Positions 6,110 to 61,556 of a stretch of DNA of 64,000 bases are shown piece after piece; position 1 is the stretch's first letter, and every line of letters starts with the position of its first letter. The translations under genes and the position numbers were made by a program. This DNA is from Paramarasmius palmivorus (taxonomy: Eukaryota; Basidiomycota; Agaricomycetes; Agaricales; Marasmiaceae): assembly GCA_037176845.1 (NCBI GenBank), contig JAYKXP010000093.1, positions 140,984 through 204,983 on the forward strand, given 5' to 3'. The notes beneath the pieces were generated by a model. That model saw nothing but the letters and a program-made list of their open reading frames with translations. It was not told where the DNA came from and did no database searches.

Positions 6110-7436
6110 ATGTTCGTCTTTCAAAAGCTTCCACTATTCTACATGGCTAATACAAAACTTGCTTCAACCAGGTTGACCGTTTTCCCGCGCGACAATGGGT
6201 TCTTCTTTGACAATGTTACTCAAATTCCTCTGGAAACACAGTGGGACGGAGCTGTCCAACTCAGGATTGAATGGCATCTCGACCCACACTCGTTGGTCAA
6301 TAAGCCTGTCCAGTTCGTGATATGGCTGGCAAATAACTCACTTTTGAATCTCACCTCGTCGTCACCACCTTGTGACGTATCTCCTTGTAATGCAACGTTC
6401 AGCCCACTTTCCCCGGAGTGAGTAGCCGAAGAGACTGAGATTTTGCCGGTTCTAACGATATTTTCTCGGGAAGCGAAGATTATGATATAGGAGCGAATGA
6501 GGCTCGCGGGTAAGTATCAATCATTCTCTCAGTTTATAGCTTTATGATTGCATACTTCAATTAGGGCATGGCTTGGTTCTTTCAATTCACATTTTCGTGT
6601 ACAGACGAGCGTGTTTAGTACTTCTAGTATGACACCGACTCGTGAAAGGTATACTTGTTCTATCATTGTTTGAATTTCTCCTGACTCTTCTGCGCTCCGC
6701 CTTTAGTTCCACAAGTATTTCAACGACAAATACCACAACAACACTCGCGACACCTCCAAGTTCATATGCTCCTTCGAGTTCCTCGGTTGCCACGACCTCG
6801 TCAATACCCACGACCGCTGCTGTCACCACAACCAGCCTATTCCGGGGAGCGCTCCCATCCACTACTCTCATGACCCCATTCATTCCCAGTTCCGCATCCA
6901 ACCAAGCCGAGAGCACCCGAAATCCGAGTTCATTCGATCCTGTTGGAGCCAATGATACATCCGAGACAAGATCAACAAAGACTTCTATCATTGGACCTGC
7001 AACTGGCACGGGAACTGCACTCGTAGCCATCCTGATACTCGCCCTGATATACTTCTGTCGCCGCCACCGACGCCAGCAATGCACCGCACTCAACCGAAAC
7101 ATGATGGTCCGACAACCCCAAGATCAAAATGTTGAAATCGAGATGAGAAACCGACCTGATTCTGGTTATATGAGTACATATTCGGCATCAGTCACTGCTT
7201 TGAACACAGGAATAGAGATGACGGGGAAGATTGGTGTTCAGACGGAGAGACAGAAAGAGATCGAAGAGCGGATGCAGCACTTGGTGGCGTTGTTGGATAC
7301 ACTGGAAAGTCAGTCACAGATTGACTCGGAGGCGTCAATTGGAAAGGTGAGAGAGAGGATTAAAAGGTTGAGTGCATTGAAGGAGGGGGAGTGGGCTAGG
7401 GAAGTATCTGATGTGAAGCCGGTGGAGATGATGTGA
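6110..7436 (+). CDS. A1: receptor-like single-pass membrane protein with T1 tail
   Basis: Exons 6110-6417, 6474-6509, 6565-6648 and 6707-7436 join in one frame with GT-AG introns, all phase 2, giving 385 residues. The ectodomain has QLRIEWH and the cysteine pair PCDVSPC. The micro-exon codes DYDIGANEARG, the next exon begins AWLGSF, and a long Ser/Thr stalk leads to a membrane helix near IIGPATGTGTALVAILILAL, followed by CRRHRR. The cytoplasmic tail is T1: a helical segment RQKEIEERMQHLVALLDTLE, then KVRERIKR and LKEGEWAREVSD. The start is the first ATG after the TATA box; its N-terminus is a weak signal peptide, so an upstream exon is possible. Ligand and function are unknown. Confidence 0.75.
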
Positions 7437-7555
7437 TCTATGCCATAGGTGTTAGTTCTGTTAGAATTTGACACTGGTTAGAGACGATTGGTCCAACTCG
7501 GGAGGTGCCGGACCACGTCACATGTCAAGATAACAGAGCGGTGACGTAGCTATCC

Positions 7556-7589
7556 TGTAACGCTAATGAAAATTTTCATTAGGGTTACA
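7556..7589. repeat. 34-bp near-perfect palindrome
   Basis: The centre, CTAATGAAAATTTTCATTAG (7563-7582), is a perfect 20-bp palindrome. It is extended by TGTAAC on the left and GTTACA on the right with one mismatched pair. It lies 120 bp after the A1 stop codon and could form a cruciform, be a transposon footprint, or act in 3' processing. Confidence 0.7.
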
Positions 7590-9546
7590 CTTTCCTGGGC
7601 GCTTATGTCCTAATCTGCGTCGCGCTCAAACCATTATACAGAGCGTTTAATGCTTCTGTGGGCGAATGTGATTACTTGTAACCAGTTGGTAGCTAGGTAC
7701 AGGGATCCAAATTGATGGTTTGAGTACGGGAGATAATATCTCTTGCTCTTTGTTGGTGCTGTTGCTGCACACTTCAGACCGCTGGTGGGAGATTTTGATC
7801 AGATGGGACTCAAGCTACTGAGGTGAGTTAGTACAGTTCCTTGCAGTAAGAAGCCCGTAAGGAGTTGGGGGCAAGTAGGGGGTGGAAATAAAGAAAGAAA
7901 CTGTTAGGTTGTAATCCATCATATGAGTGTTATTTTCAGCACAGTGGAAATGTACAGGCCTCCGAGTCCATCAGGAATCCATCTTATAAAGCTTCATAGT
8001 ATATTACTGAATATTCTATGAGATTTCCGAGGTGTAGTATGTATGTATTTTAGTGGAGTCAATAACCATACAATGTTCCCGCAAAGTTCGAACTTCATCT
8101 CATTTTCTCCCGAGCACACCCACTCTCAGCACTCTCCCATATTGCTCTCATTGTCATACCAAGTCCTTGATTCCGGCTGCCTGCCAGTGGGGATGGTTTT
8201 GCACCACTGTACATTCCATCACGGACCATCTTGAGTCCTTTCCAAGATTGCTATTAACAATTTCAGGTGGCTAATTATGTGCTTGGCTAAAAGTTCTTTA
8301 TCCTATCCTGTTTCCCCTGAAACAGAATCCACTCACTGCAGTGCTCCCAGCTGCTCCCTCATCTCTCTATCTGGCTCATTCATTGATGGATCCAAATACG
8401 ATTGGTGCAAACAAGATGGAATATGTACGGCAAGGGTACCGGTAAGCATTCTATGCCATCGAAACTGTTAAAGACCTTCAATACAATTAGATCACTCGAA
8501 GAAACGCACCCGACTGCATTCTCCTCTTCAGCACCTCCCCCTTTCAGTATTAATCCCTCCTTCCCTCCTCAGAAACATTCACGACTTCCCACCCCCAGTA
8601 GAATCCTTCTAAAAACCCGCCGCCGTTTCAGTGTTTGGCAGTCGGGCAGGGAGCCGTGCTCTCGGATGAGCTGAAGGGTCAAAACCATAGGAGGAGCTCG
8701 GAACCAAGGATATGCACATGATTTTTCGCGCTCGCCACGAACATCCGCACAACCATGCACGACGACCCACTTTCCTCCCATATTAGCATGTCTGCATGAC
8801 ATCAGAGATACATTACCCAACGAGACTCTTCCTCGTTCTGTTATGGACATCTATCACCCGGCCTTCTCTCATGGACTTTATGGATGAGTATACCTCGTTC
8901 CAAGATCGTAAGGAAGGAGAGCGAGGATCGGGACGGTGTGCTTTCCGAATATACGTTCGTCCGTCTGGCAGTGGTTATAGTGTGCCATCATGATACATGC
9001 ATTTAAGTGTTTGAGCAGCGAAATGGAGTCATACAGGAGGCTGTGCTGGTGTGTCCGCCCAATCAAGTTTGAACATTCTATTACAGTGCTTACTCTTTTG
9101 TTTGGAGGCACCAACGTACTTCAAACGGTACTCTGCCCTCTCATTACACCTTATTTTCAGGCTCACAAGGATTCTCAGGTGTTGCCGCTCTTCCTCTGCA
9201 CCGTTAACGTTATCGCGAGGTTTCAAGCTCAGCGATGGCTACATGCCCTTTGTCTAGGGTTCATCACCAGTTATCACCTCCTGAAATGGTGCCTCGCTAA
9301 CATTAATGAATTATAAAAGAAACCCATTCACAGTTTATTCCAACAAAAGCTACCTTTCTTTGAATGTTGCGTCCTCGGTGCATTAACGCTAACACAGCAT
9401 GTGTTTGTCGTTTCAAATAGCTCATCTAATATCATCCCCATTCACTCACCTCTCGTCTCAAGATCTACAAACCCACGTGCGTGTGGTTCTAGTAGTCTGG
9501 TCCAGTCTGCGTTGTAGTGGTAAATTCCGGATCTAGTCCCGAACCT
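7590..9546. other. Intergenic, no supported gene
   Basis: Small open frames (for example 8402-8674 and 8990-9316) overlap on both strands and carry no recognisable motif. No repeat shared with the array spacers was noticed apart from pyrimidine-rich patches around 8510-8590. Confidence 0.45.
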
Positions 9547-10459
9547 ATGCGCGTACGGGAGCTCATAATTGCAGTGTTATTGTTAGGTTTGCATCACGCC
9601 TTCGGAAAAATCAAGGAAACCGAAGAGATTATCCGCAGCAATTGACGCTGGCTGTAGATATATATGCACGGAGTTGTCCCATGTTCTGTTGCAACTCTCA
9701 AGAACCAAGACGAGACCGCGATACGCTTTCGTTGTGCATAGAAGCGCATCTAGGATGCCCACTGCACATATTAGCTCCAATCCGGATTTCCCAGAGTATA
9801 GGATTCGTGCTGAACAGAGCCCCCCAGAGGCGTTCCCCGATGGAATGATCCAACTCAATATCACTTGGGGTACGGAAACAGACTATGACGAAGGCAGGCC
9901 TCCTATATACGTTAAAATGTGGAACGAGACATTTATATCGTTGGGCATGACACCGTGCAATGTGTTGCCCTGTTTAACCAACTTCAGCTCACTTACATCA
10001 GGGTCAGTACGTCGATATTATTGCCTTTTCGATAAAATTGATTGTGACATGTATTTCACCATAGAACGTACAACTTGAGTGCAATCACCATCAGTCCCTA
10101 TCAGTAAGTGTTTATGCACCTCGTAAACGTTGGCTTATTCGTACCCAAGGTGGCTTGGCGACTTTATCTCAACAGTTGTCATTCAGGTGCCCCCAACTCC
10201 AAACGTTTCTCCAATCCACAGGTATGTTTTCCTCCCCACGTTCACTTCGACAAATTGATTTGCTGAAACCTATAATGAAACAAGTACGGATACAGGTTCC
10301 GTTATCGGAGGTGTAGCTGGAGGACTTTGCTTTCTCACATTCGTGATAATTGTAGTCATATACTTTCGTCGGCGGAGACGGTTGTCAAAAATTAGGGATG
10401 CAGCTGCATTTGATAACCATAGAATGGTCAAGAAGCCGAAAGAGCGTACGATAGTATAG
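9547..10459 (+). CDS. A2: receptor-like membrane protein with a truncated T1-like tail
   Basis: Exons 9547-9581, 9658-10002, 10065-10103, 10150-10221 and 10285-10459 join in frame (phase 2 throughout) to 221 residues. Exon 1 codes the hydrophobic start MRVRELIIAVLL. The ectodomain has MIQLNITWG and PCNVLPC. The micro-exon codes TYNLSAITISPYQ, the next exon WLGDF. The stalk is almost absent: a Gly-rich helix (SVIGGVAGGLCFLTFVIIVV) and FRRRRR follow directly. The tail stops after about 25 residues, yet its AFDNHRMVKK matches GFNRxxMVK at the start of T1 tails, so this looks like a T1 member that lost the helical end. The exon 2 acceptor is uncertain, with other in-phase AGs near 9747-9760. The ectodomain donor is GTCAGT. 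Confidence 0.55.
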
Positions 10460-10969: not shown

Positions 10970-11381
10970 CCATCTTCTGAATGAGCCTCCATTTCATATG
11001 TTTGTCTGAGGAGTCAAGCTTAGAGCGATCTGTTGAATAACGGAAATGTTGTGTTAAACTTACCCTATGGACACTCGACTCCTCAAGAACAGCGCAAGAC
11101 AAAAACTTGCCTGACACAATTCTTCGGCGTCGGTTGGTCCCTGTCCTGAGAAGACAGGTACAAGAGTGAACCGGACAGGACTGTTTGAGTTGTCTTCGAA
11201 ATGGTAGGTGATGTTAAATTGAAATGTGCCAGCCGGCGCCGATTGAGTTTCCATAACACTATCCAGACTGAAACCTTGAGCCCATGCCAAAGCAATTGCC
11301 ATTGATCTAGTCACCGGAAACTCTCAGCTCATAACCTACTGAAGGGCAAAAAAAGTACAGTAACCACAAGTAACGCAACAT
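10970..11381 (-). pseudogene. A3: 3'-truncated receptor-like gene, convergent to A2
   Basis: On the minus strand, exons 11381-11368, 11306-11064 and 11005-10970 are in frame. They code a signal peptide MLRYLSMAIALAWAQG, an ectodomain with FQFNITYHFEDN and a CQASFC cysteine pair, and the micro-exon QTYEMEAHSEDG. After the next acceptor (near 10918) the WLG-type exon is not recoverable and reaches a stop. No stalk, membrane or tail exon exists before A2. It is the remnant of a tail-to-tail pair. Confidence 0.6.
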
Positions 11382-17990: not shown

Positions 17991-18059
17991 ATGCCATGTA
18001 AGGTTCTTGTATTCCTTTCATCGCACCCCGCGCCCATGCCTACATTTACTCCGGCCGAA

Positions 18060-19203
18060 ATGTTTTCAGAGTTTCCGTCCTTATTGTGAGTGCGTCTATA
18101 GAACGTGGATATGGTTCACCCATGCTGTCGTTGTTTCAGCCCAACCCCGTTAGTATCGGCTTTGCCAGAAGCCCAAGCTTTCACAATCGATCTGGTAACT
18201 GTGAATCCAGCACCACACCGTGGTCCTGGGAGTAAAGAAATGGCCCAGCTTACCATAACCTGGCATTACACTCCCACCGCGTTTACAGTCGGGCAACAAT
18301 CTCTCATTGACTTCAGATTAACAAATGATACCGATGTAGTGGACTCTTCGCATTCATGTCGTGTCAATCTTTTAACTTGTTCGACAAAGTTTGACTCGCT
18401 ATCTCTGGGGTAAGCACGTGAATTATGAAGCTTAGTGCGATGATTGACTCATGCTCGATACCAGGAGCATGTATTATCTTGAGGCTTTTTGGGACGATGG
18501 GTAAGTATCTCACCTCACGCATGTTTGGTTGTGTCTTACCGTCTGAGTAGGACGTGGCTTGGCAATTACAGTGAACCAGTCCTAATAGGAACGGACACGG
18601 GCAATGCTCCTACATTCTCTCCTGACAAGTATGCTTCTGCTTATCCCTAGTCTCTCCACGCGGACTAACTCTTACCCTAGTCCCCGGTCCAGTAGTGCTG
18701 ATGTACCTACTCTCCCACGTACCCCCACCAGCATTCTACCCACCAATGACACAAGTACCCATTCAGAGACTCCTACTATCGTTGGAACCCATTCAGACAT
18801 TCCTACTATCATTGGGGGTGCAGTGAGTGGAATAGTCGCACTCGTTATTATCCTCGTGTGCAGCACTGTTATCTTCCAACGCCGAAGAAGGAAAATTCCA
18901 CCTGAGCAGACTATCATCAGCCCTTATCCAACTCGTGGTATGATATCCAAGGTGCTTGGGCACAGGAAAAGGCAACGGTCCGATGAAGATCCTCGTACAC
19001 ATACAGAATCTGGGGCTAATCATGCACCTGGCCCAAGTGATATAGAAGATTTCAACGAATATCGGGAAAGTGAACCCGTACAACAGAGAACTCGCCGTGT
19101 GCGATGCCACGATGATAGCGGTTGGCGCCCATTGCCTCCGCTTTCGGAAGCAAGTGATTCGAGTGTGTTAGACATCCCGCCCCATTACGACGCAGCAACG
19201 TAG
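18060..19203 (+). CDS. A4: receptor-like membrane protein with T2 (PPxY) tail
   Basis: Exons 18060-18085, 18140-18409, 18465-18500, 18551-18628 and 18681-19203 join in frame (all phase 2) to 310 residues. The ectodomain has AQLTITWHY and the cysteine pair CRVNLLTC. The micro-exon codes MYYLEAFWDDG, the next exon TWLGNYSEPV. A Ser/Thr/Pro stalk precedes the helix IIGGAVSGIVALVIILV, then QRRRRK. The tail is T2: RRVRCHDDSGWRP, then LDIPPHYDAAT at the C-terminus with a PPHY motif. PPxY motifs bind WW domains, classically those of Ned4/Rsp5-type ubiquitin ligases. The N-terminus (MFSEFPSLF before the first intron) is a poor signal peptide. A tandem partner, A5, follows with a different tail. Confidence 0.7.
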
Positions 19204-20586: not shown

Positions 20587-21585
20587 ATGCAGGGACAGCC
20601 ATCGCTACTGTGCGTTCTCTCCATACTCTAGTTGTCGTTAATTCAGGTCTCCGTTAATTTTCAGCCCGACCACGATAGTCGCTCCATTTCCAGAGTTCAC
20701 GATCACAAGTGTAATGGACTCGACAGTAACGCTCCCCATCCGTCAAAGACGAGATGTTACTCAGCTTACCATTTTGTGGTTTTACGATCCCATCAAAACC
20801 AGAACGAGTTCGGAGACGCGCATCAATTTTTCGGTTTCGAACGAGACTAACGTATGGGTGAATGCGTCTTCGCATTCGTGTCCAGTCACTACTTTGAGTT
20901 TCGATGCAAAGTTTCATTCGTTGTCATCGGGGTGCGCAAATAGACTAAAATGCTTAGCCGTGACGATCGACTCATGCTCGATGCCCGTAGCACGTATTAT
21001 CTTCAGGCTTTTTGGGATGACGGGTGAGTACCATGACTCGTGCCTGTTTTGTTTTTGTCTTACCGTTTGAGTAGAGCATGGCTTGGGAATTACAGTGATC
21101 CGATCCCCATACGAGCAGATATAGATGATGATCCTTCTGAGAAGTACAGTTCAACTCATTTCTTGTCATTCCACGCAGTTAACTTCAATCCTAGTCCTCC
21201 ATCTGATGTGACACCCCCCACACCCACCATCACACCGACAACGATTGTCCCTTATTCGAGTGTAAGCATTTCCAACCCGGGAATTATCACAATCACCGAA
21301 TCCAGCGAATCTCGACCTACGTTGAATTCCACTTCGAATACAACCCAAAAAAGCGTAAATAAACCTGCAATCATCGGAGGTGTTGTCGGCGGAATAGTTG
21401 CACTTCTCCTCATCTTAATACTTTACTGCCAATGCAGAGGGTATTACAGACAACGAATTCGTGAGGCTCCGTTGGATAACCAAATGCCGGTCAATGAGGA
21501 CGTGAGTAAGCGAAGATACTCGCGGTTATGGAGTACTGTGTCGGATTCGGGAGTGACAGACAAGGCTGTAGTCAATGGAAAATAG
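20587..21585 (+). CDS. A5: receptor-like membrane protein with a third tail type
   Basis: Exons 20587-20609, 20665-20931, 20991-21023, 21075-21143 and 21195-21585 join in frame (all phase 2) to 260 residues. The ectodomain has TQLTILWFY and the CPVTTLSF segment; only one cysteine of the usual pair is evident. The micro-exon TYYLQAFWDDG and the AWLGNYSDPI exon closely match A4, so they are tandem duplicates. The stalk is Thr/Pro-rich, the helix IIGGVVGGIVALLLILILYC, then a weaker basic stretch. The roughly 50-residue tail ends SDSGVTDKAVVNGK, with neither T1 helix nor PPxY. The N-terminal exon (MQGQPSLL) is not an obvious signal peptide. Confidence 0.65.
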
Positions 21586-22151: not shown

Positions 22152-23285
22152 ATGTTGTAGGTTCCATTCTTGTTGCGAGTTTTTGTTCTGTTGCTGAAGC
22201 CGGAGTTATAAACGCTCGCTCCTGAATGTTAGTTTAGCAGTACCAGTTTCTACACAAGGTATTCATGGGTTCAAAATTGATAGCGTCGCACAAATCCCAT
22301 CGTCACCAGCAAACTCCATTCAACTTAACATCTCATGGCATTTCGACAACGAGGTGTCAATCCCTATCAATTTCACAGTAGTGGATTACGATCTTAGAAC
22401 ACCCAGATCCTCTGCATTACAACTGTGTCAGGAAGCTTCTAGTGTTGTCAATTTCACCGCAAAGGCGATCCCTCCAGGGTGAGTATATGGTAGTACCTTG
22501 CTTCTGTGGCTGAATTGGCTGTGTGCATAGCTGGTACGGTTTGATGGCTTTCAAAGAGGATGGGTAAGTGCCCAAACGTGTTTTACAGGATACTGGATGA
22601 TTCTCATTCCCTGTGTTTTCAGGTCGTGGCTTGATGATTTCAAGGGAGGACCAATTAATATACGCTTGGGTCCTTTCAACACAATAGGACAATCAGGGTA
22701 TAGCTCTCCTGAAATCCATCAGAGTTCGCATGTTAACCACTTTGTCGTCTTTGATGTTCGAGTTCCTCACCGATCATCTCAATTCCATCATTTACAACTC
22801 AAAGAATATCCGATTCTCCCACTCCCCTTCCGAGTGATCCAAACGTGTCTCAACGAGGCAAAGATACTACCAGTAACCATTCAGTCAGATCTGCTATAAT
22901 TGGGAGTGCTGTAGGCGGCGGAGTCGCGCTCATCATGATCATCGTGCTCAGCACTATAATCTTCCAACGCCGAAGAAGGAAGATTGTGACTGAGCAGGCT
23001 ATCATAAACCCTTGTCCAGGCTCCGGTATGATATCCAAGGTACTAGGGAACAGGAAAAGGCAATGGTACGATGAAGGTCCTCGCGTACCTACTACAGACC
23101 CCGAAGCATCAGCCCCAAATTATATAGAGGAGTTCAATGAAGACCGGAAAGGTGAACCGGTACAACAAAGAGCTTGCCGTGTGCGGTACCATGATGATAG
23201 CGGCTGGCGCCCCTTACCCCTACCTTCGGAAGCAGGTGATTCGAGTGTGTTACACATCCCTCCCCATTACGACACGGCAATGTAG
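22152..23285 (+). pseudogene. A6: receptor-like gene with T2 tail, early stop codon in the signal exon
   Basis: Exons 22152-22174, 22233-22478, 22531-22563, 22623-22697 and 22805-23285 keep a continuous frame of 286 codons, except that codon 3 is TAG where A7/A8 have TGG, and the first donor is GC (GCGAGT) instead of GTGCGT. The ectodomain has SIQLNISWHF. The micro-exon codes WYGLMAFKEDG, the next exon SWLDDF. The helix IIGSAVGGGVALIMIIVLS is followed by QRRRRK. The T2 tail has VRYHDDSGWRPLP and ends LHIPPHYDTAM. The body is intact, so this is either a recent pseudogene or it uses another start that I cannot find. Confidence 0.55.
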
Positions 23286-29890: not shown

Positions 29891-29999
29891 TCAACTCTAT
29901 GTTCATGCTAACATAGTTTTCAGTGTGTTTGCGTTTCTGCTTCGGCAATGCCAACCCATCCAATTGTTGAACCATAAGTGTGGAGTGCAGCGATTCTGA

Positions 30000-44320: not shown

Positions 44321-45461
44321 ATGTTGTGGTTTCTCTTGATATTGTGCGTTTTCTTTATATTTGCGAGCGTCTGGTAATACTCAAACCTCCCGCGGTAGAC
44401 TAGCAGTGCAGGTGTCTCCGCAACAGTATCACAAAATCATAATTCAAGACGTGCAGACTTCTTGGGCGCCGGCCTCCGCAATCTCACTAATAATTACTTG
44501 GAATTTCAATGACGGAGAGCACAAAAATGAGAAACCCCTGTTCGCTCTTGTGCAAGCATCCGACGATCCCCTTGTATTCAATGCAACCGAGGCTTGCGAG
44601 CTAGCCGCTCCTTGCCTTCCGCTATTCACTCTACCACCGTCAATATCCGGGTAAGACCATGAAGGAGTACTGCTGCTTCGGCTAACTCCTTTCACTTACC
44701 TCAGAGAACTCAAATTTCACTTACAGGCCCATTTGGAGAATGGGTAAGTGGTCATGCGTGATTCGCCTATCTCTAGATTTATTGAACGAGCCTGAAGGTC
44801 AGAAGATTTTGATGACAGACAGATCGCCGTTAACGTCGCTGGAAGTGAAGCTAATGCATCTGTAATCTCTGTCAGGTACGATTTTCTCACCACTCTCATT
44901 TGGAAAGGGCTGAAAGTCTTGCATAGTTTCCCGACGTCTACCATGTCAAGTACGAGTTCAAGCCCTCCCACTGCCACTCCTGCCGCGTCTCACGGCCCGA
45001 ATCCGAACAACCCAACGATCATAGGGGCGGCTGTGGGCAGTGTAACAGGATTCATCCTGATTATGGTTTCCCTGATATGCCTTCTCCGACGCCGCTCCAG
45101 GCGCAGAAAGAGCGCAATCGGATTCAATAGAAATATGATGGTCAAGGGCACAGGTGATCTAGAGGTCGAAGCTGATATGGACCCGCGGCGACACTCAGAT
45201 CACCGATACTCCAGTTTATCCACCGCCTCAGATATCGTATCCGATTCTGAGCTCACGGAAAAGCAAACCGAGAGGCAAATGGAGATCGATGAGCGGTTGC
45301 ATCATCTAAATGATTTATTGGGTACACTGGAAAGTCAGCCGCAGGCGGAGAATGATGGGTCAATAGGGAAGGTTAAGGATAGGATAAAACGATTTACGGT
45401 GTTGAAGGAGGGGGATTGGGCAAGGGAGATGTCGGATGAGAAGCCGGTTGAGCTGAGGTGA
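44321..45461 (+). CDS. A12: receptor-like membrane protein with T1 tail, inverted twin of A13
   Basis: Exons 44321-44343, 44399-44650, 44705-44743, 44798-44875 and 44927-45461 join in frame (all phase 2) to 308 residues. The signal peptide MLWFLLILLAVQVS is split by intron 1 (55 nt, GTGCGT donor). The ectodomain has AISLIITWNFNDG and ACELAAPC. The micro-exon codes ELKFHLQAHLENG, and the next exon SEDFDDRQIAVNV replaces the WLGSF motif. The helix is IIGAAVGSVTGFILIMVSL, then RRRSRR. The T1 tail has GFNRNMMVK, EIDERLHHLNDLLGTLE, KVKDRIKR and EGDWAREMSDEKPVELR. Its ectodomain is nearly identical to A13 on the opposite strand, which carries T2. Confidence 0.75.
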
Positions 45462-45724: not shown

Positions 45725-46867
45725 TCACAATGCATTCTCGTACTCCGGTGGAACGTCAATAAAGTTGCTACCCCCATATTCCGAAGGAGGCACGTGTAAA
45801 TGGCGTGGCCTCCATCCGCTGTCTTCGTGTCGACGAAGTCTCGGTTGCTGAAGCGATGTTATCGGTGGTGGAGGCTCTTCAGTAGCTTGCACTGTATCGG
45901 GATCGGCTTTGGGAGCTTGGGCCTCCATGGTAGGCTGTACTGGGGATTGCGAGACCGAGATTTGGTTATATGTATCACTGGGATGATGTTGCTCTTTTCT
46001 CTGGCGAAGCCCCAGTTTTTCGCGCACTTGCACGTCGGTTGGGTAAGGTGTTATGGCTCGCGTTTGCTCTTTGCCTTTATGACGATTGAAACGTCGCCGA
46101 TGTCGACATAGGCAAAAAGAGGCGATCACAAATGCGATTACACTGCCCACAACCGCCCCTATGATCGTCGACTTGTTCGGATTCGCGTCGTGAGACGCGG
46201 CATGGGTAGTAGTGGGAGAGCTTAAAGTCGTACTTGACATGGTAGGCGTCGAGGAACTATACAATACTTTCAGCCCTTGCAAAACGAGAGCAACAATGGA
46301 CTAATACCTTGAAGGGACTACAGACACATTAACTATACTTCCAGTGACGTTAACGGCGATCTGTCTGTCATCAAAATCTTCTGACCTTCAGGCTCGTTCA
46401 ATAAATCTAGAGATAGGCGAATCACGCATGACCACTTACCCATTCTCCAAATGGGCCTGTAAGTGAAATTTGAGTTCTCTGAGGTAAGTGAAAGGAGTTA
46501 GCCGAAGCAGCAGTACTCCTTCATGGTCTTACCCGGATATTGACGGTGGTAGAGTGAATAGCGGAAGGCAAGGAGCGGCTAGCTCGCAAGCCTCGGTTGC
46601 ATTGAATACCAGGGGCTCGTCGGATGCTTGCACAAGAGCGAACAGGGGTTTCTCATTTGGCTTGTGCTCTCCGTCATTGAAATTCCAGGTAATGTTTAGT
46701 GAGATTGCGGCGGCCGGTGCCCAAGTAGTCTGCACATCTTCAATTATGATTTTGTGATACTGTTGCGAAGAAACCTGCACTGATAGTCTACCGCGGGAGG
46801 CTTGAGTATTATCGGACTCGCACGTAAGTATAAAGAAAACGCACAATAGCAAGAGAAACCACAACAT
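45725..46867 (-). CDS. A13: receptor-like membrane protein with T2 (PPxY) tail
   Basis: Exons 46867-46845, 46787-46533, 46478-46440, 46385-46308 and 46256-45725 join in frame (all phase 2) to 308 residues. Intron 1 (57 nt) has no stop, so a retained form stays open. The ectodomain (AISLNITWNFNDG, ACELAAPC), micro-exon and next exon match A12 almost residue for residue. The stalk ends SHDANPNKSTIIG, the helix is AVVGSVIAFVIASFCLC, then RHRRR. From there the gene differs completely from A12: the T2 tail has RRHEDSGWRPRH and ends FIDVPPEYENAL. Gene conversion or inverted duplication followed by tail replacement would explain the pair. Confidence 0.75.
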
Positions 46868-47022: not shown

Positions 47023-47289
47023 TTCCTTGTGTTCCCAGTATTGATGTGTTGATGTATCACTTGATATTTCCCTCGTAGACTATAAAACAGCATCTGGTCT
47101 GAACAACGTAAAGAGGAAGCGACGAGCGTTCTCGAGAAGGATGGTAACGGACGGCAGCATCAACAGTAATAAATACTTGAGGAACCCGAGGGTCTAGTAG
47201 TGCTTTTACCCCTGGAATCCTCATATATTGTTCACTTCTGATTCCAATGATTGAGTATGAAGATAATCTCGAGACTGTTAATTCTGGTA

Positions 47290-47412
47290 GGCGCGATACA
47301 GACGAAGAATAATGGGTCGATAGTGAAGGACGACGATCGAATAAAGCAGTCGACGGTGTTGAAAGAGGGAGATTGTGCAAGGGAGATCTTGGATGAGAAC
47401 CCGCCAGGTTAA
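47290..47412 (+). pseudogene. T1 tail relic facing A14
   Basis: One frame retains GSIVKDDDRIKQSTVLKEGDCAREILDENPPG-like order, that is KVKDRIKRFTVLKEGDWAREMSDEKP of the T1 tails with several changes, and ends in TAA. It lies tail to tail with A14 (T2 tail, minus strand), just as A12 faces A13. Confidence 0.65.
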
Positions 47413-47506: not shown

Positions 47507-48850
47507 TTACAATGCATTCTCGTATTCTGGAGGAACGTCGATGAGATTACTGCCGCCTGACTCTGATGGTGGCGGCCAAGGAATGTTTCGGGGTCTCCAT
47601 CCGCTATCCTCGTGTCGCCGAAATCGAGGTTCACGGGCCTGCCTCGGTGCTGTTATGCGTTCTGGAGCAGATGGTATCTGTGTCGATACTCTTTCAGGCT
47701 GCAGAGCGACGTTGCGAACTTGTACCTGAGGCTCCGTGTCTCTCTCTGAGTCATGAAGTCGTTGGTGTTTACGTTCGCAACGTCGCAATTTATCGCAAAC
47801 TTGTATGAGAGCCGGATAAGGTGTAATACTTCCTTGGTATGATCCATGATGGTCATTCAACGAGCGGTGCGAACGGCGCCAACGTCGGAATAGATATATG
47901 GAGAGTGATATGATCGTGATTGCTAGGATGATGGAGCCCACAGTAACGCCAATAGCCATTGGCTTGGACTTCAATATGCTCGGATGCTTGCCTACAACGG
48001 GGACATAATTATAGGGTCTATGCCAATCGAATTATAAATGACGAACCCGACTCTGAAGTAGGCCTTCCCGTTTCTGAGGACGTTATTGTCTCCACCGGTG
48101 TGGAATCTGAAGCTGTCGTTCGGGGGTTAGCTGATGAGGTGCTGTCAGTGGGTCTTGATCCCATAGTCGTTAAACTGCTTGCGAAGGATTAAATGAGTTT
48201 CCGAGTGAATATGCACCTAATGAATCGCGAACCTTGCTTCCGTTACAGCAATACGGCTACCTATGGGAAAACGCCAGTCTTTGCTATACATCTCTGTTAG
48301 TCCATGATGGATTTGAAAGCTACCGCGTAATCACCCCCCAAGTTCCAAGTGGTAGGTCCTATGTTGGCATTAGTCATGCTACCCAGCATCCAAGTTTGGC
48401 ACCTCTACCCTGCTTTCGTTGCAATGAATGAAAATTTCCCAGTTGTCTGCCCCTTGGTGCACGTCATTTGAATCGTACTTGATCGCTCTTGGACGGAGGG
48501 CTCGTCTTGTACAAGGACAACTCTGAGCGAGTCTAGGTTTTGCCCAGGCAAAAGAGGGAAGCCCCAAGAAGCACTAGCTGGTACATTAACGGTTCCAGTA
48601 GAGGGTGCTGAGACGAAAAATTTGCTCCAGCCAGCTTGATCATGACGGTCTTGGAGTTGACCCCTCTCAACGCGACTATTGATTGGACCATTTAAATCCA
48701 TGGCAACAGTTATCCTGTACCAAGAATGTTGATACAAGCATTAGTGGAAAACATTCATGTGCAACTCACAGTATGAGGAGGATGCTAGCGAGAGTGATAG
48801 AGAACAACAGGCCGTGGGAGAGTTTCCGACGAGGCTTTGTACTAACGGAT
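47507..48850 (-). pseudogene. A14: receptor-like gene with T2 tail, start codon missing
   Basis: Minus-strand exons about 48850-48770, 48714-48409, 48358-48335, 48283-48233, 48174-48047 and 47991-47507 are in frame. They code a hydrophobic leader (LLFSITLASILLIL), an ectodomain with SAPSTGTVNVPASASW and no cysteine pair, the micro-exon TYHLELGG, the exon RFPIGSRIAVTEAR, a Ser/Thr stalk, the helix IGVTVGSIILAITIISLSI, then FRRWRR. The T2 tail has FRRHEDSGWRP and ends IDVPPEYENAL. Upstream of the leader the frame runs into TAA without an ATG. The copy A15 has an ATG in sequence that is deleted here. It may be non-functional. Confidence 0.55.
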
Positions 48851-50019: not shown

Positions 50020-50827
50020 TCAATTATGATTTTCTGATACTGTTGCGAAGAAACCTGCGCTGCAAGCCTCCCGCAAAAACCTCTAGTACTTATTACCAGA
50101 TACTCGAATATATGAAGAAAACCAAGAGGAACCACGACATCCTCGAAATTTTCGACTCTCAAGGCTGTATCAGTGGACGTTTGATGCGGGGTCCCATTCA
50201 CTCACACAGGGTCTACCTATACACAGCTCGAGAACCTAGGTCACAGCATCCTGATCATCTCCCGGTTTCCTTGTGTTTCCTGTATTGATATATTGACGTA
50301 TCACTGGATATTCCCCTCGTAGACTATAGAACATCCAGTCTAAACACCGTAAAGAAGAAGCTACGAGCGTTCTCGAGAAGGATGGTAACTTGGGCAACAA
50401 CGGGAACCCGATAAAGTCTATTAGGATGACATAAATTTACTCCTGGCATTCTCATATATCACCTATGATCCTAGGACCTATTGATCGAGGATAAAAATGA
50501 CGAAGATCACCGTTAAGTCTGGCAGACGGGATATGTGTTCATGTTCTCTTGGCACTCTTCGAGAACCGTCTTCGCCTGCACAAAAGTCCACAACGCTTCA
50601 ACATCAGCATCCGGATCTAATTGATATCATGTAACGCATCTGCGTCAACTTCACCACACACGGCTGCGTATGACCTGTGTATATTCGAGTAACCGAACGG
50701 AAAGCTACGAGGAGCTAAACCGACGCGGGCGACATGGTAAAGAAGCAACAAATGAGTAAGGTACGTAACGTAGGTAAAAGCGAAAAGGTATCCCTGATAC
50801 GAACGCTAATACGAGCGCCTTTTCGAT

Positions 50828-51022
50828 CGATGCAGCCTACGTTGGAGATCAATGACTCGCTGCATCATCTGCAGGATTTACCAAGTACGTGGGAAGGTCA
50901 ACGGCAGACAGAGAATAATGGGTCGATAGTGAAGGTCAAGGATCGGATAAAGCAGTGAACGGTGTTGAGAGAAGGGGATTGGGTAACGGAGATTCGAATG
51001 AGAAGCCGATTGAGGTGGGGTG
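50828..51022 (+). pseudogene. T1 tail relic 1
   Basis: Codes EINDSLHHLQDLPSTWE, then GSIVKVKDRIKQ and a TGA. Out of frame beyond it lie the remains of the LKEGDW..EKP end and GGGGTGA. It is a degraded T1 tail without membrane exon. Confidence 0.7.
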
Positions 51023-51310
51023 ACTTGCTGAGAGTGGTTTGTTCAAAAATCTTGTAATTCTGTGAAAATCTGCAAACGGTAAACACCCATTCACCTTGTT
51101 ACATGTGATTTATTTTTACCCCTGGAATCCTCATATATTGTTCACTTCTGATTCCAATGATTGAGTATGAAGATAATCTCGAGACTGTTAATTCTGGTAG
51201 GCGCGATATGTGTTCATGTCCTCTTGGCAATCTCCGAGAACCGTCCTCGCCTGCACAAAAATCCACAACGCTTCAACATCAGCATCTGCATCTAACTGAT
51301 ATAACCTTCA

Positions 51311-51499
51311 ATGCAGCCTACATCGGAGATCAATGACTCGTTGCATCATCTGCAGGATTTATCAAGTACTTTGGAAAGTCAACCACAGACGGAGAATGAT
51401 GGGTTGATAGTGAAGGACGACGATCGAATAAAGCAGTCGACGGTGTTGAAAGAGGGAGATTGTGCAAGGGAGATCTTGGATGAGAACCCGCCAGGTTAA
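51311..51499 (+). pseudogene. T1 tail relic 2, facing A15
   Basis: Codes EINDSLHHLQDLSSTLESQ, then VKDDDRIKQ and LKEGDCAREILDENPPG, ending in TAA. It is a fuller copy of the relic at 47290. It is 95 bp from the A15 stop codon on the opposite strand. Confidence 0.75.
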
Positions 51500-51593: not shown

Positions 51594-52929
51594 TTACAAT
51601 GCATTCTCGTATTCTGGAGGAACGTCGATGAGATTACTGCCGCCTGACTCTGACGGTGGAGGCCAAGGAGTATTTCGGGGTCTCCATCCGCTATCCTCGT
51701 GTCGCCGGAATCGAGGTGCACGGGCCTGCCTCGGTGCTGTCATGCGTTCCGGAACAGATGGTATCTGTGTCGATACTCTTTCAGACTCCAGAGTGACGTT
51801 GCGAACTTGTACCCCAGGCTCCGTGCCCGATCCAAGAAGTCGTTGGTGTTTATGCTCATGACGTCGCAATTTATCGCGAACTTGGATGAGAGCCGGATAG
51901 GGTGTAATACTTCCTTGGTATGGTTCATGATCGTCATTCATCGAGCGGTGCGAACGGCGCCAACGTCGGAATAGATATATGGAGAGTGATATGATCGTGA
52001 TGGCCAGGATGATGGAGCCCACAGTGACGCCAATAGCCATTGGCTTGGACTTCAATATGCTCGGTTGCTTGCCTGCAACGAGAACGTAATTATAGGCTCC
52101 CATGCCAATTGAAGTATAAATAACAAACCCGAATCTGAAGTAGGCCGTCCCGTTTCTGAGGACGTTATTGTCTCCACCGGTGTGGAATGTGAAGCTATTG
52201 GTCGGGGAACAGGCGACGATGGAGTGGTGCTGGCGGAGCTTGATCTCGCAGTGGTTGGACTGCTGGCGAAAGATGAGATGTGTCTCCGAGTGAATATGCC
52301 CCTAATGAATCGCCAACCTTGCTTCCGTTACAACAATACGGCTACCTATTGGGACGCGCTGTCGACTATACATCTCTGTTAGTCCATGACGGATTTGAAA
52401 AGTAAGGCGCAATAAAATTCACCCCCAAGCTTCCAGGTGGTAGGTTCTATTTCGGTATTAGTCATGCTACCCTAACATCCAAGTTTGACACCTCTACCCT
52501 GCTTTCGTTGCAATGAATGAAAATTTCCCAGTTGTCTGCCCCTTGGTGAACGTCGTTTGAATCGTACTTGATCGCTCTGCAACGGAGGGCTCGTCTTGTA
52601 CGAGGACAATTCTGAGCGAGTCTAGGTTAAGCCCAGAGAAAAAAGGATAGTTCCAAGAAGCATTAGCTGGTACATTAACAGTTCCCGTAGAGGGTGTTGA
52701 CCAGGAGAATTTGCCCCAGTCTCCACTGGAATCTTTTGAACCATTCGAATCCATGGGAGCAGTTATCTTGTACCAATAATGTTGATACAAGCATTAGCGG
52801 AAAATGTTCATGTGCAACTCACGGTATGAGGAGGATGCTAGCGAGCGTGATGGAGAATAAGTAAGTAGGCCGTGAGATTGGACAAAAGAGTTTTCGACGA
52901 GGCTTTGTAGAACACAAATTGATCATCAT
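51594..52929 (-). CDS. A15: receptor-like membrane protein with T2 (PPxY) tail
   Basis: Minus-strand exons 52929-52823, 52725-52498, 52446-52423, 52365-52318, 52259-52129 and 52072-51594 join in frame to 338 residues. The leader contains YLFSITLASILLI. In A14 and A16 exon 2 begins at an acceptor followed by GATA. Here that acceptor is shifted by a G-to-A change (TACAAG) and would give an immediate stop, so I used the in-frame acceptor TTCCAG at 52726, which shortens the ectodomain start. The ectodomain has STPSTGTVNVPANASW, the micro-exon TYHLEAWG, then RVPIGSRIVVTEAR. The helix is IGVTVGSIILAITIISLSI, then FRRWRR. The T2 tail ends LIDVPPEYENAL. Confidence 0.6.
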
Positions 52930-55277: not shown

Positions 55278-56697
55278 ATGGGATCTTTCTCGCTTCCTCC
55301 CAGTCTCACGTATCCCGCTACATTCGTTTCTATCACATTCGCTAGTATCTTCCTCATATTGTGAGTAACCATATATGATTCTTGTCTGCGACTACTCAAT
55401 CGAATACTTCTGGTATAGGATACCTATTTTCATGTATTTGGATAATTCAATGACTGGTCTGGCGGGGAGAGGCCAAGATGAATCACAAGACCACCGCGGG
55501 GACTGGAGCAAACTTGTCGTCTCCGTACCCTCTACTGGAACCGTTAATGTACCAGCTAGTGCTTCTTGGAAATACCCTCCTTTCTCTGGGAAAAACCTAG
55601 ACTGGCTCAGAATTGTCCTCGTAAAAGACGAACCCTCCATCAAAGAGCGATCCAGCAAAATTCAGACGACGTTTACCAGGGGGCAGACTGAGGGAAATTT
55701 TTCATTCATTGCAACGGAAGCAGGGTAGAAGTGCCAAACTTGAATGTTGGGGTAGCATGACTAATACCAGAATAGGACCTACCACTTGGAAGCTGGAGGG
55801 TGAATTTTATTGCGCTTTACTTTCCAAATCCGTCATGGGCTAACAGAGATGTCTAGCAATCACCGGCGCATTCCCATAGGTGAGCGTATTGCTGTAACGG
55901 AAGCAAGGTTGGCGATTCATTAGGGGCATATTCACTCGGAAACTCATTTCATCCTTCACAAACAGTCCAACCACCACGAGATCAAGTTCCACCGTCAGCA
56001 CTTCATCGGCTGATCCCCGATCAACAGCTTCAGCCTCAATACCGGTGGAGACATCATTGGGTTCGACCCAATCAGAACGTCCTACCTCAGAGTCGGGTGA
56101 TATCTATCATTAAATGCAACGTATGCTGATGATTACTTTGCAGGACTCATCCCCCATACTCGATTGTGACCTCGATAGTGACAACCACCACTTCCATAAC
56201 GCCATCAATCACTCCTCCCGCTGAAGTGAAGGCACCCAGTGTTATTGGCCCTATCTTAGGATCAATTCTCGGTATTCTCGTTTTTACAATTGCCGCAATT
56301 CTCCTCTACTTTCGATGTCGTCGAAGCTCTGCACATGCCGTCCATAGCAACGTGAAGGTGGTTCCGAGGCCCTGGTGGGCATCCTCGCGTTACAAATTCG
56401 GGATAAAATCGCACTCTCGAAGCAATATACAATCGGCAGATGATATCCCAGAGACTAGTACCATTGCCCCATCCGATTCTATCTCGCAAGTATGGGCGAA
56501 AAAAAGGAGATCGGAGAAACATCGACCACTGCGAGAATCGTCGGACTTGGCCACTGTCGCTGAGAAGTCGAATGAGCAAAAAGGTAGAGAAACAGGGAAT
56601 CTGGAGCATTCACGAGGGAGGTAAGTGTGTAAGCCATCGATTCCAGCCCTCGCGCTACTTACTGATGTTCATTCCTTCTTGAAGCACGGACGACTAG
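55278..56697 (+). CDS. A16: receptor-like membrane protein related to A14/A15, different tail
   Basis: Exons 55278-55360, 55419-55724, 55776-55799, 55857-55907, 55966-56096, 56179-56620 and 56685-56697 join in frame to 349 residues. The leader is FVSITFASIFLILIPIFM. The ectodomain has SVPSTGTVNVPASASW and ends FSFIATEAG at a GTAGAA donor. The micro-exon is TYHLEAGG, the next exon RRIPIGERIAVTEAR. A Ser/Thr stalk precedes the helix VIGPILGSILGILVFTIAAI, then FRCRR. The cytoplasmic part (about 110 residues) is basic and has neither T1 helix nor PPxY, ending in STDD. It lies in opposite orientation to A14/A15 and is the most intact member of this subfamily. Confidence 0.7.
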
Positions 56698-57262: not shown

Positions 57263-58915
57263 ATGTTCTGCTCCACCTATCGTGAGACTGGCTCCCATAT
57301 ACGCTCTTTTTCAATATTCCCACTGTAAGTATTCTAATGTGGACCAGCAAGCAAGATATTCAACATTGTTCACAGCATTTTATTTACTGTGCTGTTCCCC
57401 TTTGCCACGGGACTCAGAATCATCTCTACCTCCTCTGCCCCAGCAATCATTTCGTGTAGCTTCACTCCATTTCGTTTCGTCCGAGAGGCAGGGGATCCGG
57501 ACTCATTCGGAATTCTTGCAATGAATATAGACAATCAACTAAAGGATCATGGACAGCCGGTACCAATAGATTTTGGTGAGGACGAAGGAGAGTTTGAAAT
57601 TCAATTTCCTAAAGCGGGGTGAGTAGTTCTCGGATCTTGACGTCTATACATCCCTTACACGAGGCTTTAGTCAATATCTTCTCAAAGGAATAGCAGAACA
57701 AACGTACGTTTAGCGCTTATAAGACTAGCTACCTTGAGCTGAATATTCCATAGGCTCTCCAACGGCCAACAATTCACGGCACTTACAACAGGGGCCCAAT
57801 TCAGCGTTGCATCAGGCGGTACTCTTTGTGACTACGACCAGTTCAAAGGCTCAGGCAATCCTTCCCAGAGCGAGACAACCTCAAGTCCATCAACTCAAGG
57901 GTCAACTTCTAGGTACGTAGCCTACTCCAATCAGGTGTTATCAACTCATAGAAAAGAAAGCACTGTAATCAGGACCTTCACTGTATCACCCCCAAGCGGG
58001 ACGACAAGATCGAGGTATGGTTCATCTTTCTAACTCTGAGGTACCATCTCATACGCGTCTGTAGGACTATCAGTACCACCCCTTCGACGTAGGGACGCTA
58101 TTCGAGTTGGGAGTATTGAATATTGAACATTATCAGTCAAATTTCTACAGGGTCCGAGGGTACGATAAATATCCCAGGGACGTTAGCAAGCACCTCAAGT
58201 CAGGAACTCTCGACGACATCTTCGAGTCCGACACACAGCTCTTCGGCAGATGAAACAACATTGACAAATACGTGGGTCCTGTGTATGCAGTGTCCCTATG
58301 ACGACTGATGATCATTCTACTTTTCCAATACCAGTATCACAATGCCATCATCAAGGTAGAGCTGATTTTGATCCCTGGCCAATAACAGTGGTATCTAAGG
58401 AGTTATCAGTCCCCAGTCCAGCTCAACATCTCACACAACAACGACAGTGCCGGGAAATGCACATACGACCACCTCATCGACCAGCGAATCAGCCACACCC
58501 ACTCCTCCGTGAGTAGACCCAATTTTCATGCGAGTTTCACGCCGATTATTCATTTCCGGAAAGAGTTACTTCCCCTTCCAACCAAGACGCTGAGCGTAAC
58601 CAGCGGAACGGCATGATCTTAGGCATTATCGGAGGTATATTTGTGTTTATACTCCTCCTCATGGCCTACTTCCGCCGTCAGCGCCTCGAATCATCCAGAA
58701 GAGTGGAGCTATGGCGGGAACATCTATTTGGAGAGCGCCGGGAACCACTTCCAGTTCGCCCTAGACCCTCATGGAGACCATTGAATCTCAATAACCTATT
58801 CGCTGGTGCCCGTGAGGATAGGTCATCTGCGAGTACGAATACAGGTAGTCGCTGGGTTGAAACTCGGCGAAATTCACCGTTGATATTTAGACCTGAGCGT
58901 ATTATAGCAGTATAG
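57263..58915 (+). CDS. A17: receptor-like membrane protein with many small stalk exons
   Basis: Ten exons (57263-57324, 57376-57618, 57671-57703, 57754-57912, 57973-58014, 58065-58088, 58137-58271, 58335-58355, 58422-58508, 58564-58915) join in one frame, all phase 2, to 385 residues. The leader is FSIFPLILFTVLFPFATG. The ectodomain ends IQFPKAG, followed by the micro-exon QYLLKGIAEQ. The stalk is built from five small Ser/Thr exons of 21-135 nt, such as TFTVSPPSGTTRSR. The helix is ILGIIGGIFVFILLLMAYF, then RRQR. The tail (about 75 residues) is Arg-rich (RPRPSWRPLNLNNLF) with no T1 or T2 motif. The structure rests on splice signals and phase only. Confidence 0.6.
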
Positions 58916-60711: not shown

Positions 60712-60990
60712 TCAACGAGGTTGCCACTGCCGCGTCAGAAAGAAGGCGCACCTTATCGCGTTGATGAAACTACCTCGTCGAACTGAGGATGTTTCAGGAA
60801 GTGAGTTGTCGTGTTTTTGAGTTTTGAGAGGCTGGAAACTCCTTGATCTGTTAAACACCACAACTCGACTCATCATTGAGTACGAGCGGAATCGAGCTCT
60901 CACTCGACGTTGGTATAATGCCGTGCAAAGGAAGACCACCAGTGTGAGAAAAGCGGCGGTTGCGACAATGACAATTGTACAAGGGACCAA
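60712..60990 (-). pseudogene. A19: orphan membrane/tail exon
   Basis: The minus-strand frame codes PCTIVIVATAAFLTLVVFLC, a typical helix, followed by YQRRVRARFR and about 50 mostly polar, basic residues. The frame continues upstream into the end of A20 without an ATG. It has no stalk or ectodomain of its own, so it looks like a leftover membrane/tail cassette. Confidence 0.4.
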
Positions 60991-61037
60991 ACATGCCGAG
61001 AAATTTTTCCATGAAAGAGTATGTACATCCGTAAACT

Positions 61038-61556
61038 CTATGAGATCGCCGTCTCATAGTCTGGCGGAACATCGATTATATTGCTACTCCCAGACTCTGA
61101 TGGTGGCGGAGGTGGATATCGTGGTCTCCATCCACTATCCTCGTGTCGACGAAACCTTGGCTGTCTAGGGGGTAATGTGTCTGGAGGAACTTCCTCATCG
61201 TGACGTTCTACGCGTTGCGTGTTGCCCCGGGCTGAGTTGTCCATCTGAGGCTGGCTTTCACGCTGACGCTGCGATAGATTTGTGCAGAAGTGCATGATGG
61301 TGAGGAATCGAGCGATAATATGCAAGGTGGTGCTATCGTTTCCGAGGCGATTTGAATGACGTCTATGGTAGTATACATAAAGTGGTATGACCACTATAAT
61401 GAGGAAGATTGCTCCAATAGTGACGACGACGATTACAAGTATGGGTGGTTCTTCTGATGGTATGGGCATAGTGGAAGGCGTTGGTGATGGGATTTTCTTG
61501 ATGTGGACCCTGTTTGAAGAGGTGTGGATTGTATGCCCCTCTCGGTCGTTGCTATA
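61038..61556 (-). CDS. A20: membrane protein exon with T2 (PPxY) tail; 5' part uncertain
   Basis: The minus-strand frame from an acceptor near 61557 codes a Ser/Thr/Pro segment (PSPTPSTMPIPSEEPP), a helix ILVIVVVTIGAIFLIIVVIP, then YYHRRH. The tail has FRRHEDSGWRPRYPPPPPSE and ends NIIDVPPDYETAIS. The PPDY is the eighth PPxY in the window. Upstream on the minus strand, a hydrophobic leader (SVATLVILPLAVVLYSLRF, about 61885-61825) followed by GTAAGT probably starts the gene, but no in-frame ATG or clear joining exon was found. Confidence 0.5.
   Translation of the reverse strand, partial: YSNDREGHTIHTSSNRVHIKKIPSPTPSTMPIPSEEPPILVIVVVTIGAIFLIIVVIPLYVYYHRRHSNRLGNDSTTLHIIARFLTIMHFCTNLSQRQRESQPQMDNSARGNTQRVERHDEEVPPDTLPPRQPRFRRHEDSGWRPRYPPPPPSESGSSNIIDVPPDYETAIS

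What the first reader, a model, noticed from the sequence alone, without database searches (positions are those of the whole stretch)
6110..61556. Array of receptor-like proteins built from interchangeable outer and inner modules
About twenty loci share a plan: signal peptide, ectodomain, micro-exon, stalk, membrane helix, Arg-rich stop-transfer, tail. Outer domains and tails are combined independently (T1, T2 or unique tails). I know of no named family matching this plan; that is absence of recognition, not a search result. A role in allorecognition or sensing is inference.
Basis: partly seen in the sequence, partly recalled or inferred. Interest (0 to 1): 0.85.

Follow-up and report, generated by a model that had tools for sequence, protein, structure and literature searches.

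The report
Fungal receptor array with paired tails
A mushroom-forming fungus carries a long row of surface-receptor-like genes in which neighbours with two different inner tails share the same outer domain by copying it from each other, a pattern known from paired immune receptors of mammals, while some of the outer domains differ strongly between two versions of the row.

Summary
The array is real. The window ends contig C93 of Paramarasmius palmivorus (Agaricales). It holds 12 copies of one small outer domain (predicted Ig/FN3-like); 10 lead into a membrane exon, all 10 with a modelled 24-39 bp micro-exon. They end in a coiled-coil-like tail (T1, 4), a PPxY tail (T2, 4), a short or a unique tail. 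Six or seven further membrane genes carry other outer parts. In the proteins scanned, Pfam passes its cut-offs only on the low-complexity stalk and membrane helix.

The new result comes from a second copy of the array (contig C104, probably but not surely the other nucleus). In the tandem T2/T1 pair W25/W27, flanking and tail sites group by tail (T 45 and 212; H 2 and 3), but the outer module with its introns groups by array copy (H 127, T 0, S 2). The inverted pair W44/W46 shows a weaker exchange in the same place. Two control quartets show none (T 146 and 418, H 0). So neighbours with different tails share an outer domain through local gene conversion; in W25/W27 it is about 50% identical between array copies.

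Best reading: fungal analogues of paired receptors. Ligand, outputs and allorecognition are inference; I had no RNA or strain data.

The parts
6110..7436 (+). W6: E ectodomain, micro-exon 36 bp, stalk, TM, T1 tail; exons 6110-6417, 6474-6509, 6565-6648, 6707-7436; signal peptide weak
9755..10459 (+). W9: E ectodomain, micro-exon 39 bp, TM, short basic tail; start codon and signal peptide not settled
11069..11278 (-). W11: E ectodomain exon, no TM exon found
18036..19203 (+). W18: E ectodomain, micro-exon 36 bp, TM, T2 tail (NCBI VNI00_015135)
20587..21585 (+). W20: E ectodomain, micro-exon 33 bp, TM, unique tail
22240..23285 (+). W22: E ectodomain, micro-exon 33 bp, TM, T2 tail; first exon not settled, fourth intron weak
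25086..26268 (+). W25: T2 partner of the tandem matched pair; exons 25086-25108, 25166-25420, 25497-25520, 25577-25663, 25731-26268
27376..28632 (+). W27: T1 partner of the tandem matched pair; exons 27376-27398, 27456-27707, 27782-27805, 27861-27918, 27982-28632
25051..25663 (+). Conversion tract in W25 (partner stretch in W27 ends with its exon 4, about 27918): sites group by array copy, not by tail (H 127, T 0, S 2)
   Evidence: controls
29781..29912 (+). T2 tail relic
37233..37379 (+). W37: E ectodomain fragment, closest to W25 (70% aa)
39025..39943 (+). W39: different outer region, TM, T2 tail ending PPEYEHAV; upstream exons uncertain
41162..42394 (+). W41: E ectodomain, micro-exon 33 bp, TM, T1 tail; coding DNA identical in C104 (C59)
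44321..45461 (+). W44: T1 partner of the inverted matched pair (NCBI VNI00_015140); exons 44321-44343, 44399-44650, 44705-44743, 44819-44875 (start of exon 4 uncertain), 44927-45461
45725..46867 (-). W46: T2 partner of the inverted matched pair, tail to tail with W44
44445..44771 (+). Exchange tract of the inverted pair: 4 swapped sites (44445-44498) plus one swapped 3 bp indel, then 5 copy-grouped sites (44648-44771), between long tail-grouped stretches
47254..47409 (+). T1 tail relic
47507..48714 (-). W48: K-type outer domain (48408-48632), TM, T2 tail; first exons uncertain
50749..51496 (+). Two T1 tail relics (50749-50955, 51305-51496)
51594..52754 (-). W52: K-type outer domain (52497-52721), TM, T2 tail; first exons uncertain
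55278..56624 (+). W55: K-type outer domain (55501-55725), TM, unique tail
58613..58915 (+). W58: TM and unique tail; upstream exons not resolved (merged in my model)
61038..61991 (-). W61: short outer part, TM, T2 tail ending PPDYETAIS

Best explanation
A lineage-specific array of single-pass surface receptors that works in part as paired receptors. Each gene encodes (seen in the sequence, exons modelled) a small outer domain (Ig/FN3-like fold, predicted), an S/T-rich stalk, a membrane helix, a basic stop and one of a few tails. In the two neighbouring T1/T2 couples that share an outer domain and occur in both array copies, the outer module is exchanged between the partners by gene conversion (shown: strongly in W25/W27, weakly in W44/W46). 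Inferred: one ligand specificity is read by two receptors with different outputs. T1, with a coiled-coil-like tail, would assemble and pass a signal. T2, ending in PPxY, would bind a WW-domain ubiquitin ligase of the Rsp5/NEDD4 kind, so that it is taken up or dampens the response. When the outer module changes in one partner it is copied to the other, so the pair stays matched while the specificity changes. What the outer domain binds (a partner hypha, another fungus, a host or bacterial molecule) is unknown.
For: Tandem quartet W25(T2)/W27(T1) against C50(T2)/C52(T1): tract 25051-25663 H 127, T 0, S 2; upstream 24525-25050 H 2, T 45, S 2; 25869-26420 (TM, tail, 3' part) H 3, T 212, S 0. 35 of the 127 lie in introns 1-3 and 25 at third codon positions of the ectodomain exon, so protein convergence does not explain it. 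Upstream DNA groups by tail, so a whole-gene duplication in each copy does not explain it. Inverted quartet W44(T1)/W46(T2) against C63/C65: nearly all exceptions to tail grouping lie in the same module. Controls: K-type T2/T2 pair T 146, H 0, S 0; non-adjacent W22(T2)/W41(T1) T 418, H 0, S 0. Ectodomain aa identity between copies 0.55 and 0.48 for W25/C50 and W27/C52, TM+tail 0.78 and 0.86 with dN below dS. 27 of 28 long T2 tails in the fetched DNA end in PPxY, 0 of 15 T1 hits hold it. Two models give a beta-sandwich matched by Ig/FN3-type domains. Precedent: conversion preserving ectodomain similarity between CD300A and CD300C despite opposite signalling (PMC12447643, abstract).
Against: Only two such couples, in one genome; the inverted pair rests on 4 S and 5 H sites plus one indel. 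Conversion among tandem paralogues may be neutral. A third neighbouring T2/T1 couple, W39/W41, is not matched (W39 has no E domain), and W6 (T1) and W22 (T2) have no adjacent matched partner. Strong divergence between array copies is not general: ectodomain aa identity is 0.72 or less in 4 of 9 compared E genes (W6, W22, W25, W27) and 0.89 or more in 5 (W9, W18/C45, W41, W44, W46). No binding, expression or ubiquitination data. C104 may be a segmental duplicate. Excess of nonsynonymous change in W25/W27 is not significant (about 12 to 0 in the ectodomain; 16.8 to 2.2 over the outer module, p = 0.20). T1 as a signalling tail is a guess. No Foldseek match reached E <= 0.001.
Confidence: 0.45

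Rival explanations
1. Neutral concerted evolution: tandem paralogues convert each other wherever they are similar enough; the tails escape because they are too different. No functional pairing.
For: Both couples are close (start codons 2.3 kb apart; stop codons 0.26 kb apart, tail to tail), and the tract ends where T1 and T2 sequences become dissimilar.
Against: The alignable DNA upstream of W25/W27 stays tail-grouped (T 45, H 2), and the nearby, alignable K pair W48/W52 shows no conversion (T 146, H 0).
Confidence: 0.3
2. Sensors of the environment, host or microbes: each receptor has its own ligand, and the array grows by duplication and module shuffling as in other lineage-specific receptor families. 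Matched couples are recent shuffling products.
For: Large number of copies (91 T2-like and 28 T1-like matches), many outer domains on few tails, relics beside intact genes; C45 is a fusion of W18- and W20-type parts.
Against: The couples share the outer module within each array copy although their tails and upstream DNA are older than the split of the copies, which fits repeated matching rather than one recent shuffle.
Confidence: 0.2
3. Cell-wall or adhesion proteins of the Mid2/Wsc kind with variable outer parts, not receptors for specific ligands.
For: Same overall layout (outer part, S/T-rich stalk, TM, basic stop); sub-threshold Mid2 hits (16.6 bits against 23.2; 15.8 and less); UniRef calls two of the proteins Mid2 domain-containing.
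Against: The Mid2 hits cover only stalk and TM and stay below the cut-off; a folded outer domain with cysteines and strong differences between array copies is not expected of a mechanical rod.
Confidence: 0.05

Closest known systems
Vertebrate paired receptors (CD300A/CD300C; KIR, LILR and SIRP recalled)
   Same: Single-pass receptors with Ig-like outer domains; partners share the outer domain and differ in the tail; conversion keeps ectodomains alike (PMC12447643, abstract).
   Different: No sequence relation shown; fungal; no known signalling motif of the ITIM/ITAM kind looked for or shown; outputs unknown.
Hydractinia Alr allorecognition complex (recalled; one review, PMC11999971, seen only as a search listing)
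   Same: Cluster of polymorphic single-pass proteins with Ig-like outer domains.
   Different: Animal; like-to-like binding is known there (recalled) and untested here; pairing of one outer domain with two tails is not a feature I recall for Alr.
Fungal heterokaryon-incompatibility NLR repertoires (hnwd and others; PMC2873952, PMC1805685 seen as search listing with abstract starts)
   Same: Fungal multigene repertoires that diversify quickly in parts.
   Different: Intracellular NLR proteins; no NACHT or WD-repeat family among the Pfam hits here.
Mid2/Wsc cell-wall sensors
   Same: Outer part, S/T-rich stalk, one TM, basic stop.
   Different: Mid2 profile below cut-off, no hit on the outer domain.
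Moniliophthora roreri A0A0W0FDH9 (P0008)
   Same: T2 tail with HDDSGWRP and PPDY end, TM and stalk.
   Different: Different outer domain; not named or studied as far as the hit shows.

Membership tests
Paired receptors (as a way of working) | Neighbouring receptors with near-identical ectodomains and different tails | tested here: met
   W25/W27 89% and W44/W46 93% aa over the ectodomain exon; TM+tail aa identity 0.25
Paired receptors (as a way of working) | Gene conversion restricted to the outer module | tested here: met
   W25/W27: H 127, T 0 in the tract against T 45 and T 212 on either side; W44/W46 weak; two controls negative
Paired receptors (as a way of working) | Shared ligand and opposite outputs | not testable with these tools
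   No binding or signalling data
Immunoglobulin/FN3-like beta-sandwich | Outer domain has the fold | tested here: inconclusive
Mid2-like cell-wall sensors (PF04478) | Pfam score over the curated cut-off | tested here: not met
   At most 16.6 bits against 23.2
Fungal NLR allorecognition proteins | NACHT or NB-ARC domain | tested here: not met
   No such Pfam family among hits of the array proteins scanned
Allorecognition determinants | Polymorphic between individuals and controlling fusion or rejection | tested here: inconclusive
   Strong difference between two array copies of one genome in 4 of 9 compared E genes; no strains, no phenotype
Substrates of Rsp5/NEDD4-type ligases | PPxY motif in the cytoplasmic tail | tested here: met
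   27 of 28 long T2 tails in the fetched DNA, 0 of 15 T1 hits; binding not tested

The most novel reading that the evidence does not exclude
A fungal paired-receptor allorecognition system: each haplotype carries T1/T2 receptor pairs with one shared specificity, local gene conversion renews both partners together, and the divergent outer modules of the two nuclei are different recognition alleles. It would be a surface counterpart in mushrooms to KIR- or Alr-type gene complexes.
Probability: 0.22. Interest if true: 0.92.

Novelty: new variant of a known kind. Interest (0 to 1): 0.7.

Why it matters
As far as I know, the surface molecules by which mushroom-forming fungi tell self from non-self in vegetative growth are unknown. 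This locus gives defined candidates with a recognition module, two kinds of output module and a built-in mode of change, and it makes a testable claim: one specificity read by two tails. If true, the paired-receptor design would have arisen outside animals too.

Tried and rejected
Rejected: (1) Convergence as the cause of matched ectodomains: 35 of the 127 copy-grouped sites are intronic and 25 are third positions of the ectodomain exon. (2) Whole-gene duplication in each copy: upstream and tail DNA group by tail. (3) A full inversion swapping the ectodomains of W44/W46, which the proteins suggested at first: only a short stretch is swapped, its flanks are tail-grouped. (4) Position next to a telomere: the left end of C104 is a high-copy dispersed repeat, and its first 300 bases show no telomeric repeat. 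(5) Pfam hits such as Alpha_GJ and MGC-24 (over cut-off) and Glycophorin and RIFIN (under it): on the low-complexity stalk and TM. (6) Positive selection on W25/W27: p = 0.20.

Led nowhere: literature for a described Agaricomycete family of this kind (9 papers listed; none; 12 of 39 listed; 1; none fits by title or abstract start); a nuclear genome paper of the species. [quoted passage not shown] I did not see whether it is this assembly, nor anything on ploidy. Protein searches found relatives in this genome, one M. roreri and one weak Pilatotrama protein; the tool needs shared 5-residue words, so distant relatives are not excluded.

Left out of counts: dN/dS covers 15 pairs of E genes with T1 or T2; W9, W18, W20, the fragments and all K genes were not included. 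W39, W58 and W61 were not scanned against Pfam. Stalk alignments are unreliable. Two-to-two site counts use gap-free columns only.
Full report
Where it is. The window is the last 64 kb of contig C93 (204,983 bp) of a 68.3 Mb genome in 393 contigs. NCBI proteins from contigs of exactly the lengths of C93 and C104 (204,983 and 172,674 bp) are from Paramarasmius palmivorus, Marasmiaceae, Agaricales, recorded (as Marasmius palmivorus; that the names are one species is recalled) on cacao and on oil and coconut palm (passages of PMC8581569). C104 holds a second copy of the array, collinear with the window from 4.3 to 64 kb with gaps.

What the genes look like. I wrote a small gene finder and modelled each locus backward from its stop codon, then fixed some models by hand. 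Outer domain type E has 12 hits in the window and 13 in the fetched 130 kb of C104. Ten window copies lead into a membrane exon; all ten have a micro-exon of 24-39 bp and six a 23 bp first exon. These are models without RNA. NCBI models exist for W18 and W44 and for C104 genes C47 (partial), C50, C52 and C55; they overlap mine and differ at some N-termini and exon edges. In particular NCBI starts exon 4 of W18 and W44 earlier, and for W18 that fits the family better. A second outer domain type, K, occurs in W48, W52 and W55. Signal peptides (crude hydrophobicity) are clear for W25, W27, W41, W44 and W46 among the E genes.

Tails. T1 is about 130 residues with a stretch that reads as a coiled coil (by eye) and a DWA...SDE.P end; seven more distant T1 tails from C93, C195, C40 and C152 all keep DRQMEIEE and variants of that end. 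T2 carries HxDSGWRP or similar and ends PPxY; in the fetched DNA 27 of 28 long T2 hits have it, 0 of 15 T1 hits do. In the whole genome 91 T2-like and 28 T1-like matches pass E 0.001, lower bounds by the tool's own note; by my count of the listing 26 of the 91 lie on C93, 11 on C104 and 10 on C195. One Moniliophthora roreri protein has a T2 tail with another outer domain (E 7.5e-7). That PPxY motifs bind WW domains of Rsp5/NEDD4 ligases is established knowledge (recalled; arrestin-Rsp5 papers seen as a search listing); binding here is untested.

Main result: matched outer modules. For each of the two T1/T2 couples that share an outer domain I aligned the DNA of both partners in both array copies and sorted two-to-two sites: T, grouped by tail; H, grouped by array copy; S, swapped. 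W25(T2)/W27(T1) with C50(T2)/C52(T1): 24525-25050 H 2, T 45, S 2; 25051-25663 (leader, first exon, ectodomain exon, micro-exon, exon 4 and the introns between) H 127, T 0, S 2; last intron and stalk H 9, T 5, S 2; 25869-26420 H 3, T 212, S 0. Of the 127, 35 are in introns 1-3 and 25 at third codon positions of the ectodomain exon. Ectodomain residues differ by 10 and 13% within a copy and by 45 and 52% between copies; TM and tail differ by about 75% within a copy and by 22 and 14% between copies. W44(T1)/W46(T2) with C63/C65: upstream H 1, T 107; first exon and intron T 7; ectodomain exon H 1, T 3, S 4 and a swapped 3 bp indel; from there through intron 3 H 4, T 0, S 0; intron 4 and stalk T 6; TM and tail T 119, S 1. 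This second case is weak by number but lies in the same module. Controls: K-type W48/W52 (both T2) T 146, H 0, S 0; W22(T2)/W41(T1), not neighbours, T 418, H 0, S 0. So conversion is not general in the array. A third neighbouring couple, W39(T2)/W41(T1), is not matched and W39 has no collinear partner in C104. A further kind of shuffling: C45 in C104 has a W18-type ectodomain and a W20-type tail, where C93 has two genes.

Divergence between array copies. In 250 bp steps the DNA identity is 0.60-0.79 over ectodomain and stalk of W6, W22, W25 and W27, 0.82-0.96 over their tails, and 0.91-1.00 from 57 to 64 kb except one step of 0.82. Low steps also occur where I see no ectodomain: 0.67 at 5.5 kb, 0.70-0.77 at 16.5-17.5 kb, 0.77 at 24 kb, 0.78-0.88 at 53.5-54.25 kb. 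Not all receptors diverge: ectodomain aa identity is 0.47-0.72 for four of nine compared E genes and 0.89-1.00 for five; W48 and W52 are nearly identical too. 28.75-40 kb has no collinear match in C104.

Alleles or duplicates. Three RPB2-like loci and nine chaperonin loci occur once each, and the left flank of the array in C93 has no near-identical copy, so the assembly is mostly collapsed or haploid. 59.0-63.9 kb has one full partner, C104 at 96%. Near C104:82.7-83.1 kb three contigs stop: C93 (match ends at 82,688), C164 (its end, 94,808, matches 83,112) and C137 (121,495 long; match ends at 121,011, C104:83,031), which looks like the edge of a haplotype bubble. Against two simple alleles: right of that point there are three copies, C104, C137 (99%) and C164 (92%). 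I give about 0.65 to alleles of two nuclei. The pairing result holds either way.

Mechanism. I favour paired receptors: one specificity, two outputs, kept matched by conversion; T2 with a turnover or dampening role through PPxY, T1 with an assembling role. Shown: matched modules, a conversion tract, different tails, PPxY. Inferred: ligand sharing, outputs, benefit. CD300A/CD300C in primates is a published case in which conversion preserves ectodomain similarity between receptors of opposite function (PMC12447643, abstract). The main rival is neutral, homology-limited conversion; the unconverted alignable upstream DNA and the unconverted K pair speak against it, but two couples in one genome do not settle it. 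Allorecognition is one possible use, not shown.

Novelty. In the proteins scanned, no Pfam family passes its cut-off on outer domain or tails, and the literature searches showed no description in what they listed. This is not proof of absence.

Noticed in passing
window 40.5-43.0 kb and 50.75-53.0 kb: Blocks at or near 100% identity between C93 and C104 inside a region otherwise about 80-98% alike; W41/C59 coding DNA is identical. Recent exchange, or an assembly effect.
   Followed up: partly
window 33263-35975 (-): Tc5/pogo-like transposase (HTH_Tnp_Tc5 and DDE_1 Pfam matches), in the part of the window without a collinear match in C104.
   Followed up: partly
window 13814-15334 (-): F-box-like gene inside the array (Pfam below cut-off); besides the collinear copy, similar DNA (72%) lies at C104:42346-43686.
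   Followed up: no
C93 upstream of the window to window 154 (-): Laccase-like multicopper oxidase gene, named by eye from my gene model; no near-identical second copy.
   Followed up: no
window about 60969 (-): Another membrane gene with a Cys-rich outer part (TACSDPGLNWYVDKTGESPC in my model) of a kind I recall as common in Agaricomycetes; not searched.
   Followed up: no
window 62865-63989 (-): Predicted small secreted protein beside the end of the contig.
   Followed up: no
window 30349-32115 and C104:9923-11727: 93% identical stretch in opposite orientation outside the collinear order; perhaps a mobile element.
   Followed up: no
C104:55758-56875: Extra T1 gene (C55) in C104 with a stop inside the T1 tail frame; ectodomain 0.45 identical to W41.
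   Followed up: partly
C104:1-4900: High-copy dispersed repeat, often at contig ends.
   Followed up: no
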